Source: Solirubrobacteraceae bacterium
Lineage (GTDB): Bacteria > Actinomycetota > Thermoleophilia > Solirubrobacterales > Solirubrobacteraceae
Assembly (NCBI GenBank): GCA_017882445.1
Contig: JADGPK010000006.1
Span: forward strand, 27,936 to 91,935
DNA: 64,000 nt
Direction of reading: 5' to 3'
Both the position numbers and the translations under genes were made by a program. Position 1 is the stretch's first letter. Every line of letters begins with the position of its first letter. The notes beneath the pieces are model-generated. The model made no database searches. It was not told the DNA's origin and saw nothing but the letters and a program-made list of their open reading frames with translations. Positions 47,320 through 54,791 of this stretch are shown one piece after another.

Positions 47320-49485
47320 CTAGGAGTGCCCGAAGCGCACGTCCGGCAGGATGCGCCGCGCCCAAGCGGGCAGATACCAGGCTCGGCGGCCCATCAGGCG
47401 GAGCAGGACGGGGAGCAGCAGTAGACGGATGAGCGCGGCGTCCAGCAGCACGGCGACCCCGAGGATGATCCCCATCTCCTTGGGCGGCAGCGGCCCGGAC
47501 AGCGCGAAGGTGAAGAACACGGCGACCATCACGGCCGCGGCGGCGAAGATCACCCGCCCGGAGTGCGCTAGCCCACCGATCATCGCGTCCTGGGCGTCGT
47601 GACTGCGATCCCAGTGCTCCTTGGCTGAGGAGAGCAGGAACATGGTGTAGTCCATCGAGATCGCGAAGATCATCGCGAAGAAGAACACCGGTCCCCAGGC
47701 ATCGAGGAAGCCCTGGGACTGGAAGCCGAGCAGCGAGTGAAGCGCGCCATCCTGGAAGATCCACTTCGCGACGCCGAAGGCCGCTCCGGTGGCGAGCAGG
47801 TTGGTGAGCACGCCGGCCGCGGCGAGCAACGGGGCCTGCAGGGCGAACAGCAGCAGCAGGAATCCGAGACCCAGCACGACGCCGATCACCAGGATCGTCT
47901 TGGATGAGAGCAGGCGCTGCAGATCGTGGTTTTCGGCGACCGCGCCGCCCACGAGGGTGCCGGCGGGGAGATGGGCTCGCAGCCGCTCGATCGTGGCGCC
48001 GACAGCGGGGTTGGAGGGGTCCTGGCGAGGGATGGCCGTGACCAGGGCCATCCCGCCGCCGCCGGGCTGGGCGGGCGTCGCCCGGGCGATGCCCGGGTCG
48101 CTCTGCGCGACGCGGGCGACCGTGGCGGCCTGGCCCACCGTGGTGAGGAGCTGCAGCGGGCCGGTGGCGCCCGGTCCCATGGCGGCCTGGACCTGGCCGT
48201 AGCCGACGCGCGAGGAGTCGCCGCTCGGCACGACCTTGATGGAGGGCATCGAGGTCTTCAACGACAGCACGGGCAGGGCCAGCCCGACGAGCACGATGAC
48301 CGCGAGCAGGCCGTAGCGCAAGGGGTTGCGCCACAGGCGCTCACCCCAGGCGGCGAAGCGCGCAGAGCGATGCTCGCCAGAGTGCGCCCATGGCAGCGAC
48401 AGGTTGTCGACCTTGGGGCCGAGCTTGGCCAGCACGGCGGGCAGCAGCGTCAGCGTGGCGGCGAGCGCGAAGATGACGGCGAGCATGATGCCCAGGCTCA
48501 TGCTGCGGAAGGCCGGGCTGGGGACGAGCATCACCGCGGTGAGCGAGATCAACACGGTCAGACCGCTGAACAGGACGGCCTTGCCGGCGGTGTCCATGGT
48601 GACGGCCGTGGCCTCCTGGGCGTCGAGCTTCGAGCCGAAGAAGGCGCTGCGGAAGCGCATCACAATGAACAGCGCGTAGTCGATGCCGAGCGCGAGGGCG
48701 AACATCAGCGCGAAGTTCATCGCCCAGATCGAGATGTCGAGCACCCGCGTGCCGAGATACAGCGAGCCGGCGGCCGCGAGCAGACCGAGCATCGTGAGCA
48801 TCAGCGGAAGGCCCGCTGCGACGAGCGAGCCGAACGCGAGCAGCATGATGCCGAGCGTCACCGGCCAGGAGATCACCTCGGACTTCAACATGGCCGAGCG
48901 GTTGGCGACGTTGAAGTCAGACCACATGCCGGCCGCGCCGGTGAGATTCACCTGTACTCCGCCCGTCGAGAGCTTCCTGAGGGTGCCCTTCAGGCTGTCG
49001 GCGGCGGCGACCATCCGGTTGGGGTCGCGCGCGGCGCCCCCCTGCACGATCGCGGTGTGACCGTCGCTGGAGATTGACAGCCCTGGCGTCGGAGCGACCA
49101 CAGTTCGAACCGCGGCGCTCGCCCGCAGCGTCCGCTCGACGCGCCTGATCACCGACGCGAACGCTGGGCTGGTGACCGTCTGGGTCGGGGAGTGCACGAC
49201 GGCCATCAGGCCGTAGCTGCCCAGGCCGGCGAAGTCGCGTTCGACGAGCTTGCGCGCCTGCGCCGACTGTGATCCGCTCGCTTCCCAGCCCGCGCCCGAC
49301 AGCGCGCTCTCGACCCGCGGCGCGAAGAAGCCCAGCACCACGGCGACCACGACCCAGCCGGCCAGCACGCCACGAAAGTGCGTCGCGGTGTAGCGCCCGA
49401 GGCGGCCGATCGGTCCCACGTGGGCGACCTGCCCGCTCGGCGGCTCGGCCGTCGCGAGGGTGCGGGGCGCCGCTGTCGCGCTCAC
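47320..49485 (-). CDS. MMPL/RND family transporter (GTG start at 49485)
   Basis: GIDYALFIVMRFRSAF, SMDYTMFLLSSAKEHWDRSHD and many TM helices. Confidence 0.9.
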   Translation of the reverse strand: MSATAAPRTLATAEPPSGQVAHVGPIGRLGRYTATHFRGVLAGWVVVAVVLGFFAPRVESALSGAGWEASGSQSAQARKLVERDFAGLGSYGLMAVVHSPTQTVTSPAFASVIRRVERTLRASAAVRTVVAPTPGLSISSDGHTAIVQGGAARDPNRMVAAADSLKGTLRKLSTGGVQVNLTGAAGMWSDFNVANRSAMLKSEVISWPVTLGIMLLAFGSLVAAGLPLMLTMLGLLAAAGSLYLGTRVLDISIWAMNFALMFALALGIDYALFIVMRFRSAFFGSKLDAQEATAVTMDTAGKAVLFSGLTVLISLTAVMLVPSPAFRSMSLGIMLAVIFALAATLTLLPAVLAKLGPKVDNLSLPWAHSGEHRSARFAAWGERLWRNPLRYGLLAVIVLVGLALPVLSLKTSMPSIKVVPSGDSSRVGYGQVQAAMGPGATGPLQLLTTVGQAATVARVAQSDPGIARATPAQPGGGGMALVTAIPRQDPSNPAVGATIERLRAHLPAGTLVGGAVAENHDLQRLLSSKTILVIGVVLGLGFLLLLFALQAPLLAAAGVLTNLLATGAAFGVAKWIFQDGALHSLLGFQSQGFLDAWGPVFFFAMIFAISMDYTMFLLSSAKEHWDRSHDAQDAMIGGLAHSGRVIFAAAAVMVAVFFTFALSGPLPPKEMGIILGVAVLLDAALIRLLLLPVLLRLMGRRAWYLPAWARRILPDVRFGHS

Positions 49486-49760
49486 GAGTCGGCCTGCTCG
49501 CGGGGATAGACGACCGAGCGCAACGCGAACAGGCGGCCCAGGACCAGCGAGGCGGGGCACGCGCCGAACAGCACGTAGAGCCACTGGTTGACCCCGACGA
49601 ACGCTGTCAGCAACAGAAACCACGGGGACACGGCCGCGGCGAGCGCGGCCGACAGCAGCGTGACGCTGCCGGCGAGCGCGAACAGCACACGCTCGAGCGG
49701 CCAGCGTGAATCGCCGGCGGCGGGGTTGCTGGACGGGCGGGTACACGCGGTCGCGGTCAT
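49482..49760 (-). CDS. DUF2892-like (YgaP membrane-domain-like) small membrane protein
   Basis: ERVLFALAGSVTLLSAALAAAVSPWFLLLTAFVGVNQWLYVLFGACPASLVL. Confidence 0.75.
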   Translation of the reverse strand: MTATACTRPSSNPAAGDSRWPLERVLFALAGSVTLLSAALAAAVSPWFLLLTAFVGVNQWLYVLFGACPASLVLGRLFALRSVVYPREQADS

Positions 49761-50113
49761 CGGCTCGTTCCTCCTGGAAGTAGGGCGTCGAGGTTCTCCA
49801 GCTGACGGCGCAGACCGCCACAGACGTGGTCACAAAGCTCGAACACCCCGTCATCGGCGATCGCGTAGACCGCGAAGTTGCCGTCCTTTCGCCGCGAGAC
49901 GATGCCCGCGCGGAGCAGCACGCCCAGGTGCTTCGACACGTTCTGCTGCGACGCTCCGATGGCGGCCTGCAGCTCCTGGACGCTCGCCTCGCCCTCCCGC
50001 AGAGCATCGAGCAGCCGGATGCGCATGGGCTCGCCGATGATACGAAAGCGCTCGGCGATCAACTCGACGAGCTGCTCGGGCAGCGGGCGCGGTACCTGCG
50101 TGATCGTGCTCAT
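49757..50113 (-). CDS. ArsR/SmtB-family transcriptional regulator
   Basis: GEPMRIRLLDALREGEASVQELQAAIGASQQNVSKHLGVLLRAGIVSRRKDGNFAVYAI; ATG at 50113 (TTG at 50122 also possible). Confidence 0.9.
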   Translation of the reverse strand: MSTITQVPRPLPEQLVELIAERFRIIGEPMRIRLLDALREGEASVQELQAAIGASQQNVSKHLGVLLRAGIVSRRKDGNFAVYAIADDGVFELCDHVCGGLRRQLENLDALLPGGTSR

Positions 50114-50135
50114 GCAGGGCAATATAACACAACTA

Positions 50136-50157
50136 CATCGTTGTTTGCTACTATCGT
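50136..50157. promoter_or_regulatory. Candidate ArsR operator CATCGTTG-N6-ACTATCGT in arsR/osmC divergent promoter
   Basis: Same 16 specified bases with same 6-bp spacer recur at 53268-53289 upstream of the SQR-like gene. Confidence 0.7.
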
Positions 50158-50197
50158 TGTATGAATAGGGCTACGGATCGATCGGGGTGACCATCTG

Positions 50198-50617
50198 ATG
50201 TGCATGACCGCCACCGCCCGCCGCGTCGGGCGCTCCCTCAAGCACGAGGTCGACGTCAACGGCCGCCACGTGATCGTCACCGACGAGCCCGAGTCCCTCG
50301 GCGGCACCGACGAGGGGCCCGCGCCGCACGAGTTGCTCGCCGCGACACTCGCGTCTTGCATCGCGACGATGATCGCCATATACGCGCAGAACCGCGACTG
50401 GGACATTGGCGAGACGGCCGTCACGGTCAACTACGACGCCGACAGTGTTCCCCGCCACTTCGCGGTGGACATCCACCTGCCGGATGACCTCACGCCCGAC
50501 CAGCGGCGCAGGCTGCAGCGGGTTGCGGATACCTGCCCGGTGCGTCGTGCGCTCGAAGCGGATTTCACCTTCCAGGAGCGGATCCTCACCTCGGGTCCAC
50601 AGAGCGAGGCCGCGTAG
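50198..50617 (+). CDS. OsmC family protein
   Basis: DEPESLGGTDEGPAPHELLAATLASCIATMIAIYA, ADTCPVRRAL. Confidence 0.9.
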   Translation: MCMTATARRVGRSLKHEVDVNGRHVIVTDEPESLGGTDEGPAPHELLAATLASCIATMIAIYAQNRDWDIGETAVTVNYDADSVPRHFAVDIHLPDDLTPDQRRRLQRVADTCPVRRALEADFTFQERILTSGPQSEAA

Positions 50618-50817
50618 CCGCCGCTCTCATGAGTCGGCTCAGCGCCTGCGCCGGAGGCGAGCGCAGGCCGGGCGAGGCACGTGGTCGTCAACCCGGTCGA
50701 GCCTGTTGACATCACCGCCGTCCGGTGCCATCATCGTGGCTCACGGGCACCATGGCGCCGCAGCACGACTCGTAACCGCAGACGTCGCGGACGCCACACG
50801 CAAGAGGGGGACGATCG

Positions 50818-52056
50818 ATGGGACAGATCAGGGCAGCGGCACGAATCGTTGTGATCGGCGCGCTGGCGCTCGCCGGCCTCGCCCTCTCGGCCCCCGCGGC
50901 GCTCGCGAGCTCCCAGCCGGCCTGTCCCGGCCCCGCGGCGGCCGGAACCGCGCGCTGCTTCGCGCGCGTCCTGAACGATCCCCACGGCAACCCCAGCGCG
51001 ACCACGGTGCCGAGCGGCTACGGCCCGGCGCAGTTTCACGGCGCCTACAGCCTGCCCAACACGTACGCGAGCACAGCTCCTGCGCTGCAGACCATCGCGA
51101 TCGTCGACGCCTACGACGACCCGACGATCCTCAACGACCTGTCCACCTACGACAAAACATTCGGCATCACCGAACTGCCCCCGTGCTCGGCGTCCAGCCC
51201 GAGCGCCTGCTTCCTCAAGGTCAACCAGAACGGCGTCGCCGGGTCCTATCCCTCCAAGAACTCAGGCTGGGCGGTCGAGATCTCGCTCGACGTCGAGACC
51301 GCCCACCAGATCTGTCAGAACTGCAAGATCGTGCTCGTCGAGGCCAACTCGGCCACGGGCAGCTCTCTCAATGCCGCCGAGGATGCGGCCGTCGCGCTCG
51401 GCGCGACGGAGATCTCCAACAGCTGGGGCACCAACAGCGAGTACTCAGGCGAGGTCTCCGAAAACAGCCACTTCAACCATCCCGGTGTCGCGATCACCGT
51501 CGCGTCCGGCGACAGCGGCTACGGCGCCTTCGGCTACCCAGCCGCCTCCCCGAACGTGATCGATGTGGGTGGCACGACGCTCGGCGTGACCAAACAGAGC
51601 AACGGCACCTACGCCTGGGCCAGCGAGACTACCTGGAGCGGCTCGGGCAGCGGGTGCAGCACGTACTTCTCCGCCCAGCCCTGGCAGACGCTCGTGCCCG
51701 ACTGGCCCGCGACCGGCTGCCACAGCGCGCGCGGCGTCGCGGACGTCGCGGCGGATGCCAACCCCAACACGGGCGCTGCGGTGTATGACACCACCAAGTA
51801 CCAGGGTCTGCACGGCTGGTATACGGTGGGCGGGACGAGCCTGGCCTCGCCGCTGATCGCAGCCGTCTACGCCTTGGCCGGCGACGCCGCCACACAGTCC
51901 TACCCGGCGAGCCTGCCGTATTCCAACAGCGCTTCGCTGCACGACGTGACCAGCGGCGCGAGCACCGGCAGCTGCGGCACGATCATGTGCAACGCCGCGG
52001 TCGGCTACGACGGACCCACCGGCATGGGCACGCCCAACGGGCTCGGCGGCTTCTAA
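50818..52056 (+). CDS. Secreted S53 (sedolisin/kumamolisin)-like serine peptidase
   Basis: Signal peptide; WAVEISLDVETAH, VASGDSGYGA, GGTSLASPLIAAVYALAG. Confidence 0.85.
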   Translation: MGQIRAAARIVVIGALALAGLALSAPAALASSQPACPGPAAAGTARCFARVLNDPHGNPSATTVPSGYGPAQFHGAYSLPNTYASTAPALQTIAIVDAYDDPTILNDLSTYDKTFGITELPPCSASSPSACFLKVNQNGVAGSYPSKNSGWAVEISLDVETAHQICQNCKIVLVEANSATGSSLNAAEDAAVALGATEISNSWGTNSEYSGEVSENSHFNHPGVAITVASGDSGYGAFGYPAASPNVIDVGGTTLGVTKQSNGTYAWASETTWSGSGSGCSTYFSAQPWQTLVPDWPATGCHSARGVADVAADANPNTGAAVYDTTKYQGLHGWYTVGGTSLASPLIAAVYALAGDAATQSYPASLPYSNSASLHDVTSGASTGSCGTIMCNAAVGYDGPTGMGTPNGLGGF

Positions 52057-52088
52057 GGACCCCGAGGGCCCGATTAAGGTGGCTCTGC

Positions 52089-53222
52089 TCAGCTGCCGAA
52101 CCAGCGCGCGCGGCGACTCGAGCCGAAGCGCTCCTTCTCGGCGACCAGGGCGGCGGACGGGGCGTTGAAGGTCCCGGTTCGCGTGGGACCTGACAGGAAG
52201 TCGATGTCCACGCTCCCGACTCGTCCTCTGCCGAACTCGATGTAGCACGTCCCGCGCCCGAGGTGAGGGCCTGGCGGCTCGCCGCCACGCAATCTGGCGA
52301 TCAGCGTCTGGGCCACGACGCGAGCGGCCCCCTCGGCGAACACGCCGGCCTTCGGCACGCCGGCCGTGGCGACGTCACCGACCGCGTACACGCCCGGGAA
52401 GCGCGTCTGCAGCGTGGCGAAGTCCACGGGCACGTAGCCGTCCTCGGTCATGCCACTGTCGATGACCACGTCGGGCGCGCGGTGCTTGGGCACGCCGAGA
52501 AAGAGGTCGAACGGCAACTCGGCGCCGTCGTCGAGTATCGCGACGCTGCGCCCCGGATCGAGCGCGCTGACACGACGGCCGGCGATCAGCGTGATATCGC
52601 GCTCGGCGAACTCCTTCACCAGGGCGGCAGAGGTCTCCGGCGAGGGCGGCACAGGCGTGCCGAACGGAATCACGAACGAGATCTGACACGCGTCGCGCAC
52701 CCCGCGCGCGGTGAGCTCGTCGTGCAGGAGCAGCGCACACTCGCTCGGCGCGGGAGGGCACTTGAACGGCGCACCGCAGACGCCGATGACCGCATGCCCC
52801 TGCGAGAACGTGGGGATGATCCCGGCCAGCCGTTCGGCGCCGGCGACGGAATAGAACTCGTTTCCGCCCTCGGCAAGCCCGGGCGTGGCGTCCATGTCGT
52901 AGTCGGCGCCCAGCGCGATGACGAGGACGTCGGCGTCGTGGACAGCAGCGTCCGTGGTGACGCGTCGGGCCTCGGGGTCGATCGCCGTGATCGTCTCGCG
53001 CACGACGCGCACGCCGGGCTTCGCGATGTCGCTGTAGGCCATGCGGACCGCGTCCGGCGCCGTGCGACCGAACATCACATCCAGCTTGGAGAACCCAAAC
53101 ACGAACCCGTCGTTCTTGTCGATCAGCGTGACGTCGATCTCCTCGCCCAACGCCTCGGACAGCATCGTGCAGAGCTCCAAGCCGCCAAATCCCGCACCGA
53201 GCACAACAACGCGCTCGCTCAT
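52089..53222 (-). CDS. FAD/NAD(P)-dependent oxidoreductase, sulfide:quinone oxidoreductase-like
   Basis: VVVLGAGFGGLELCTML, VIALGADYD, GVYAVGDVATAGVPKAGVFAEGAARVVA. Confidence 0.83.
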   Translation of the reverse strand: MSERVVVLGAGFGGLELCTMLSEALGEEIDVTLIDKNDGFVFGFSKLDVMFGRTAPDAVRMAYSDIAKPGVRVVRETITAIDPEARRVTTDAAVHDADVLVIALGADYDMDATPGLAEGGNEFYSVAGAERLAGIIPTFSQGHAVIGVCGAPFKCPPAPSECALLLHDELTARGVRDACQISFVIPFGTPVPPSPETSAALVKEFAERDITLIAGRRVSALDPGRSVAILDDGAELPFDLFLGVPKHRAPDVVIDSGMTEDGYVPVDFATLQTRFPGVYAVGDVATAGVPKAGVFAEGAARVVAQTLIARLRGGEPPGPHLGRGTCYIEFGRGRVGSVDIDFLSGPTRTGTFNAPSAALVAEKERFGSSRRARWFGS

Positions 53223-53267
53223 TCCTCTCCCCTTTCAGGTGGAGCGGTGCAGGGCACCACGCCGATC

Positions 53268-53289
53268 CATCGTTGGTCGACACTATCGT
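53268..53289. promoter_or_regulatory. Second copy of candidate ArsR operator upstream of SQR-like gene
   Basis: CATCGTTG-GTCGAC-ACTATCGT, 46 bp upstream of the ATG at 53222. Confidence 0.7.
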
Positions 53290-53573: not shown

Positions 53574-54791
53574 CGTAGGGCGCATAAACCCGGCCTGCAC
53601 GTAGCCGCCTTATGAATGATGGGCACGTGGAGGCGGCGGCGGCCACTGCTGCTCAGTAGCTTGATGGACCGTTGTTCGCCGACCGGAGGTGACGCGTGCT
53701 CTCGTTTCTGTACTTGGCGCTTGGCCGGATCGTCGAGCTGCTCGTTCTGCTCTGTCGCTCGCGTGACGCGAAGGAGCTTGAGATCCTCGTGCTGCGCCAT
53801 GAGCTCAGGGTGCTGCGACGCCACGGCCGGCGGGTCCGCTACCAGGAGCACGATCGGGCGCTGCTTGCCGCGTTTTCTCGGGCGCTGCCCCGCGCTCGCT
53901 GGTCGACAGCGTTCGGCGTTCGGCCAGCGACGCTGTTGCGCTGGCATAGGCGGATGGTCAGGCGCCGCTGGACCTTCGATTCCGGGCGTCCGGGACGGCC
54001 AGCGCTCGATGGGAATCTCGTAGCGCTGGTAGTGCGCCTTGCACGCGAGAACCCGCGCTGGGGCCATCGGCGGATCGTCGGCGAGCTGGCAAAGCTCGGG
54101 GTTTCGGTCTCGGAGACCTCGGTGCGCAACATCCTCAAGGCTCACAGTCTTGGACCCGCGCCGCGGCGAAGCGGCCCCTCCTGGCGAGGGTTCATCCGCC
54201 AGCAAGCTCATAGCATGATCGCGTGCGACTTCTTCACCGTCGAGACGGCGTCGCTGCGGCGGATCTACGTCCTGTTCTTCATCGAGATCCAAACGCGGCG
54301 TGTGCATCTGGCCGGCTGCACGAGCAACCCGGATGGGACGTGGGCGACCCAGCAGGCGCGCAACCTCGTCATGGAGCTGGAGGACCGTCACGACCCGGTC
54401 CGGTTCCTGCTCCACGATCGGGACACCAAGTTCACCGCAGCGTTTGATGAGGTCTTCCAGACCCAGGGCATCCGGGTGATCAAGACACCGATCCAGGCTC
54501 CCAACGCTAACGCCCACGCCGAGCGCTGGGTGCGCACGGTCCGTGAGGAGTGCCTGGACTGGCTGCTCATCTTTGGCAAACGGCAACTCGAGCGGACGCT
54601 CCCCATCTATATCGACCACTACAACCGCCAGCGCCCGCACCGGGCGCTCGGGCTGGCGACCCCGGATCCTCGGGGCAATCCGGTCCCGCTCGGCAAGCAC
54701 AGTCCCACGCGGGTGCATCGAATAGACCGCCTCGGCGGGTTGCTGCACGAGTACCGGCGCGCAACCTGATGTTGCCTTTATGCGCCCTACG
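53574..54791 (+). mobile_element. Complete insertion sequence, about 1.2 kb, with 15-bp perfect terminal inverted repeats
   Basis: CGTAGGGCGCATAAA at 53574-53588 and its exact reverse complement TTTATGCGCCCTACG at 54777-54791, flanking one transposase ORF. Confidence 0.87.
53696..54769 (+). CDS. Integrase-core (DDE) transposase
   Basis: ARENPRWGHRRIVGELAKLG, DFFTVETASLRRIYVLFFIE, HDRDTKFTAAFDE, ANAHAERWVRTVREECLDW. Confidence 0.92.
   Translation: MLSFLYLALGRIVELLVLLCRSRDAKELEILVLRHELRVLRRHGRRVRYQEHDRALLAAFSRALPRARWSTAFGVRPATLLRWHRRMVRRRWTFDSGRPGRPALDGNLVALVVRLARENPRWGHRRIVGELAKLGVSVSETSVRNILKAHSLGPAPRRSGPSWRGFIRQQAHSMIACDFFTVETASLRRIYVLFFIEIQTRRVHLAGCTSNPDGTWATQQARNLVMELEDRHDPVRFLLHDRDTKFTAAFDEVFQTQGIRVIKTPIQAPNANAHAERWVRTVREECLDWLLIFGKRQLERTLPIYIDHYNRQRPHRALGLATPDPRGNPVPLGKHSPTRVHRIDRLGGLLHEYRRAT

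What the first reader, a model, noticed from the sequence alone, without database searches (positions are those of the whole stretch)
50136..53289. Shared 22-bp operator-like motif links arsR/osmC and an SQR-like gene into one putative regulon
CATCGTTG-TTTGCT-ACTATCGT (50136-50157) lies between the divergent arsR and osmC genes. CATCGTTG-GTCGAC-ACTATCGT (53268-53289) lies 46 bp upstream of the SQR-like flavoprotein. All 16 specified bases and the 6-bp spacer length agree, and both are in the same orientation relative to arsR and the SQR-like gene; the spacer differs, so this is not a simple duplication. The arsR copy also has ACAAC-N6-GTTGT at 50129-50144. The implied regulon is arsR-DUF2892-MMPL, osmC and the SQR-like gene, possibly with the S53 peptidase between them. 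Content (OsmC thiol peroxidase, YgaP-like membrane domain, SQR-like enzyme, ArsR like BigR/SqrR/YgaV) suggests a reactive-sulfur or peroxide response; that function is inference.
Basis: partly seen in the sequence, partly recalled or inferred. Interest (0 to 1): 0.75.

Follow-up and report, generated by a model that had tools for sequence, protein, structure and literature searches.

The report
ArsR switch real; SQR link coincidental
The two matching 22-letter DNA stretches exist, but only the one beside arsR contains a conserved repressor-binding palindrome, so the claim that one switch also controls the distant sulfide-oxidising-type gene is most likely a coincidence, while the arsR/osmC switch itself looks genuine and ordinary.

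Summary
In detail: CATCGTTG-N6-ACTATCGT is at 50136-50157 and 53268-53289, the only two exact copies in the 3.27 Mb genome. The regulon reading fails for the SQR-like gene. Across relatives in Thermoleophilia, the element conserved upstream of this arsR is not the 22-mer but the palindrome ACAAC-N6-GTTGT (50129-50144), followed at once by a TANNNT -10 box. It is the only perfect copy in this genome, and 23 of 23 exact copies in 78 named loci lie within about 80 bp upstream of arsR. The SQR copy lacks the second half-site (operator-matrix score -0.5; background mean -0.3, sd 3.9; arsR site 29.9), and no SQR ortholog promoter examined holds the 22-mer. The 22-mer is best explained as an operator half plus the osmC -10 (TACTAT) at site 1, and the SQR gene's own -10 (TAGTGT) plus leader at site 2. 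Supported: one ArsR operator between two divergent -10 boxes, controlling arsR-DUF2892-MMPL and osmC. In some relatives other SQR-type flavoproteins are in the operon or carry the operator, so a sulfur theme stays plausible but unproven. The ArsR has an invariant CxxxC and no other cysteine, unlike BigR/SqrR.

The parts
50129..50144 (.). ArsR operator candidate, palindrome ACAAC-TACATC-GTTGT
   Evidence: Only perfect ACAAC-N6-GTTGT in the genome; conserved upstream of arsR across the order
50121..50126 (-). arsR -10 box TATATT, 2 nt beyond the operator
   Evidence: TANNNT at about -13 from arsR start; 16/29 orthologs have TANNNT at -30..-5 versus 0-4/29 in control windows
50149..50154 (+). osmC -10 box TACTAT, mostly inside the first 22-mer
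   Evidence: Sequence; in the two relatives with divergent osmC the same place reads TACTGT (G151) and TACTTG (G152); inference
50136..50157 (+). First 22-mer: inner operator half plus osmC -10
   Evidence: decomposition
53268..53289 (+). Second 22-mer, 46 bp upstream of the SQR-like gene; no operator palindrome
   Evidence: operator matrix -0.5
53280..53285 (-). Probable SQR-like gene -10 box TAGTGT, inside the second 22-mer
   Evidence: Closest ortholog (G095, 85%) has GATAGTGTCG with TAGTGT at -12; 14/24 orthologs have TANNNT at -30..-5 versus 0-4/24 in controls
49757..50113 (-). arsR, ArsR/SmtB repressor with CxxxC (LCDHVCGG)
   Evidence: HTH_5/HTH_20; NF033788 82.8 bits above cut-off 55; Cys pair in all 30 aligned orthologs
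49482..49760 (-). YgaP-like transmembrane (DUF2892) gene, overlaps arsR
   Evidence: PF11127 21.2 bits, E 3e-4, below cut-off 25.3; synteny
47320..49485 (-). MMPL family transporter, overlaps the DUF2892 gene
   Evidence: PF03176 E 2e-63; synteny
50198..50617 (+). osmC-like gene, divergent from arsR
   Evidence: PF02566; same arrangement in G151 and G152
52089..53222 (-). SQR-like FAD/NAD flavoprotein, not shown to be in the regulon
   Evidence: Pyr_redox_2; NF049943 189.8 bits, cut-off 525; orthologs without operator

Best explanation
A dimeric ArsR-family repressor binds one palindrome, ACAAC-N6-GTTGT (50129-50144), lying between two divergent -10 boxes: TATATT for arsR-DUF2892-MMPL, 2 nt away, and TACTAT for osmC, 4 nt away. 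Bound ArsR would block RNA polymerase at both promoters; oxidation, persulfidation or metal binding at the CxxxC pair would release it (binding, repression and sensing are inferred). The second 22-mer, upstream of the SQR-like gene, is a chance resemblance between a half operator plus -10 box at site 1 and the SQR gene's own -10 box plus leader at site 2; it is not an ArsR operator.
For: ACAAC-N6-GTTGT has exactly one perfect copy in the genome, at arsR. A matrix trained on other genomes' arsR promoters scores this site 29.9, and 17 of 29 ortholog promoters score at least 18. In 78 loci from named genomes all 23 exact copies lie within about 80 bp upstream of arsR. It abuts a TANNNT box enriched at -12/-13 of arsR orthologs. 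Divergent osmC with the same operator occurs in G151 and G152. The SQR upstream region scores -0.5, the level of background. With at most 1 mismatch the 22-mer is absent upstream of every SQR ortholog examined; among 232 order genomes the only other arsR-linked hit is G151's arsR. The closest SQR ortholog (85%) keeps GATAGTGTCG as a -10 box but not the CAACGATG half.
Against: No binding or expression data. 18/22 identity at two promoters 3 kb apart, in matching orientation and with no 1-2 mismatch hits elsewhere, is a mild anomaly. A species-specific recent site cannot be excluded by conservation. The genome is a 234-contig assembly at about 95% completeness. The osmC -10 is inferred and is imperfect in G152. 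About 12 of 29 ArsR ortholog promoters lack a clear copy of the palindrome.
Confidence: 0.85

Rival explanations
1. One reading: the 22-mer is an ArsR operator at both promoters, making arsR-DUF2892-MMPL, osmC and the SQR-like gene one regulon.
For: Exact 16/16 match, only two in the genome; placed near promoters in both cases. In relatives other SQR-type flavoproteins sit in or beside this operon: G151 arsR-DUF2892-MMPL-SQR, and G029, G054 and G062 with the palindrome beside an SQR-like gene.
Against: The site lacks the GTTGT half and scores as background. No SQR ortholog examined has the motif. The palindrome, not the 22-mer, is conserved at arsR. The operator-linked flavoproteins in relatives are only about 27-32% identical to the window's SQR-like protein.
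Confidence: 0.07
2. The 22-mer is a site of a second, unknown regulator or sigma factor acting at osmC and the SQR-like promoter, independent of ArsR.
For: The right half overlaps -10-like sequences in both promoters; exact match of 16 bases.
Against: The -10 boxes are read on opposite strands (osmC +, SQR -); only two sites in the genome; not conserved at SQR orthologs.
Confidence: 0.05
3. The two sites are relics of a local duplication of the arsR/osmC intergenic region.
For: Same strand, 3.1 kb apart, near an IS element with perfect terminal inverted repeats.
Against: No similarity outside the 22 bp and only 2/6 in the spacer.
Confidence: 0.03

Closest known systems
ArsR/SmtB metalloregulator family (NF033788), autoregulated repressors with a palindromic operator overlapping the promoter
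   Same: HTH domain assignment, small size, palindrome next to its own -10 box, first gene of the operon it would control
   Different: Cysteine pair CxxxC in the C-terminal part; inducer unknown; operon content DUF2892-MMPL with divergent osmC
BigR/SqrR (NF040642; persulfide-sensing ArsR proteins)
   Same: ArsR family; gene company of a YgaP-like/DUF2892 gene and, in relatives, SQR-type genes
   Different: Scores 42.5 bits against a cut-off of 155; only two cysteines, four residues apart, whereas BigR uses a dithiol far apart in sequence (C34, C100 in A. baumannii, PMC7315123)
Type III sulfide:quinone reductase, selenoprotein subtype (NF049943)
   Same: The window's SQR-like protein matches the model over most of its length (189.8 bits)
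   Different: Far below the cut-off of 525; the G151 operon member does pass (552.6 bits)

Membership tests
ArsR/SmtB family | ArsR-type HTH domain above curated cut-off | tested here: met
   PF01022 40.9 (cut-off 22), NF033788 82.8 (cut-off 55)
ArsR/SmtB family | Palindromic operator at own promoter | tested here: met
   ACAAC-N6-GTTGT conserved upstream of arsR orthologs, (sequence evidence only)
ArsR/SmtB family | DNA binding relieved by inducer | not testable with these tools
   Needs purified protein
BigR/SqrR persulfide sensors | Curated BigR model score | tested here: not met
   42.5 bits vs 155
BigR/SqrR persulfide sensors | Two conserved cysteines far apart in sequence (C34/C100 type) | tested here: not met
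   Only two Cys, in LCDHVCGG; CxxxC in all 30 aligned orthologs; comparison from PMC7315123
Type III SQR selenoprotein subtype | NF049943 score of the window's SQR-like protein | tested here: not met
   189.8 vs 525
ArsR regulon (SQR-like gene as member) | Operator in its promoter, conserved in orthologs | tested here: not met
   Matrix score -0.5 here; among 24 ortholog promoters the best is 14.2 (one distal site in G044), the rest 8.7 or less
ArsR regulon (osmC as member) | Operator shared with divergent arsR in relatives | tested here: met
   G151 and G152 keep osmC-operator-arsR; also named record L157

The most novel reading that the evidence does not exclude
An uncharacterised ArsR subfamily of Thermoleophilia, with an invariant CxxxC sensor and a fixed ACAAC-N6-GTTGT operator, controls DUF2892, MMPL, OsmC and, in several lineages, SQR-type flavoproteins, i.e. 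a reactive-sulfur response built on a different cysteine arrangement from BigR/SqrR; in this strain the SQR-like gene might also be recruited through a degenerate half-site.
Probability: 0.2. Interest if true: 0.45.

Novelty: new member of a known kind. Interest (0 to 1): 0.2.

Why it matters
It replaces a misleading motif with a testable operator and operon for an ArsR subfamily widespread in poorly studied Actinomycetota. It also shows how a gapped match read off two promoters in one window can be an operator half plus a -10 box rather than a regulon.

Tried and rejected
Genome-wide regulon search with the 22-mer: no sites at 1-2 mismatches; one 3-mismatch site falls inside the coding region of a type III SQR paralog (G000:C2:97472-97493) and is taken as coincidence. 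One-mismatch operators in this genome (30 places) exceed the reversed-pattern control only about two-fold (62 versus 30 strand counts), so no further members were called. An in-frame TGA flagged in two SQR orthologs looked like selenocysteine, but alignment shows it is the terminal stop. Literature searches found no description of an ArsR-DUF2892-MMPL operon. A copy of the IS element was sought in plasmids without a match.

Full report
Observation. In the 3.27 Mb genome (G000, about 95% complete) they are the only exact copies and nothing has 1 or 2 mismatches. The pattern was chosen after seeing the match, however. Counting any pair of 8-base blocks with an equal gap of 0-12 and at most 8 G+C, shuffles of the window give 0-6 pairs (mean 1.4) and the real window gives 25 rows, partly redundant. 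Shuffled upstream regions of 48 crudely called genes hold at least one pair in 17 of 100 trials. So the match alone does not establish a shared site.

What is conserved at arsR. Upstream regions of 30 ArsR orthologs from relatives show that the recurring element is ACAAC-N6-GTTGT followed by GCTANNNT. The window's copy is at 50129-50144 and is the only perfect one in the genome. With GCTA added and one mismatch allowed, 52 of 232 order genomes have it, and the loci read show it next to arsR in most cases. A matrix built without the window's site scores it 29.9; 17 of 29 ortholog promoters reach 18 or more. In 78 loci of named genomes, mostly Solirubrobacterales and other Thermoleophilia, 22 hold exact copies and all 23 copies lie within about 80 bp upstream of arsR.

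What the 22-mer is. At arsR/osmC it runs from the inner half of this palindrome (CATCGTTG) to ACTATCGT, which contains most of TACTAT, a TANNNT -10 box for osmC. On the other side the palindrome abuts TATATT, the arsR -10 box at -13. TANNNT boxes are enriched close to the start codon of both arsR and SQR orthologs, mostly at -12/-13 (16/29 and 14/24 in -30..-5, versus 0-4 in control windows). At the SQR-like gene the shared ACTATCGT is the complement of ACGATAGT; with the next bases it reads GATAGTGTCG, whose TAGTGT is the likely SQR -10 box. The closest ortholog (85%) keeps GATAGTGTCG there but not the rest. The other half of the match lies in the leader. The second half-site GTTGT is missing, and the SQR upstream region scores -0.5 against a background mean of -0.3, sd 3.9. 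Among 24 SQR ortholog promoters the best score is 14.2, one distal site in G044, and the others are 8.7 or less. No SQR ortholog examined carries the 22-mer.

Genes. arsR (49757-50113), a YgaP-like/DUF2892 gene (49482-49760) and an MMPL transporter gene (47320-49485) overlap by a few bases and form one operon by position; the order is kept in most relatives. osmC is divergent here and in G151 and G152. In G151 a type III SQR that passes the curated model (552.6 bits, cut-off 525) follows MMPL in the same direction. In G029, G054 and G062 another SQR-like flavoprotein stands beside the palindrome. These are different proteins from the window's SQR-like gene (about 27-32% identity), so they support a sulfur-related theme but not this site.

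Mechanism. Most likely a dimeric repressor on one palindrome blocks two divergent promoters. Shown: palindrome, its conservation, spacing to -10 boxes, gene order. Inferred: binding, repression and inducer. All 30 aligned orthologs keep CxxxC (LC-xx-VCG) and the window's protein has no other cysteine, so a BigR-type distant dithiol (C34/C100, PMC7315123) is not available; the BigR model scores 42.5 against 155.

Verdict. Observation confirmed; SQR link not supported; arsR/osmC operator supported and ordinary in kind.

Noticed in passing
53575-54790: Complete IS481/IS3-like element (transposase 53696-54769) with perfect 14+ bp terminal inverted repeats GTAGGGCGCATAAA, about 285 bp beyond the second 22-mer.
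   Followed up: partly
L126 4221-8945 (G151): Arrangement osmC / operator / arsR-DUF2892-MMPL-type III SQR (selenoprotein-subtype model) in a same-genus relative.
   Followed up: partly
L139 2136-3449, L138 6360-7653, L108 205-1516: SQR-like flavoprotein genes with ACAAC-N6-GTTGT directly upstream or between them and arsR in three other genomes; possible additional regulon members.
   Followed up: partly
L177: Record titled Bifidobacterium breve MAG carries a Thermoleophilia-like arsR-DUF2892-MMPL cluster (64% ArsR identity); the label looks wrong or the bin is mixed.
   Followed up: no
L061 (G044): SQR ortholog with an in-frame TAG stop at about residue 219; possible pseudogene or sequencing error.
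   Followed up: no
   Followed up: partly
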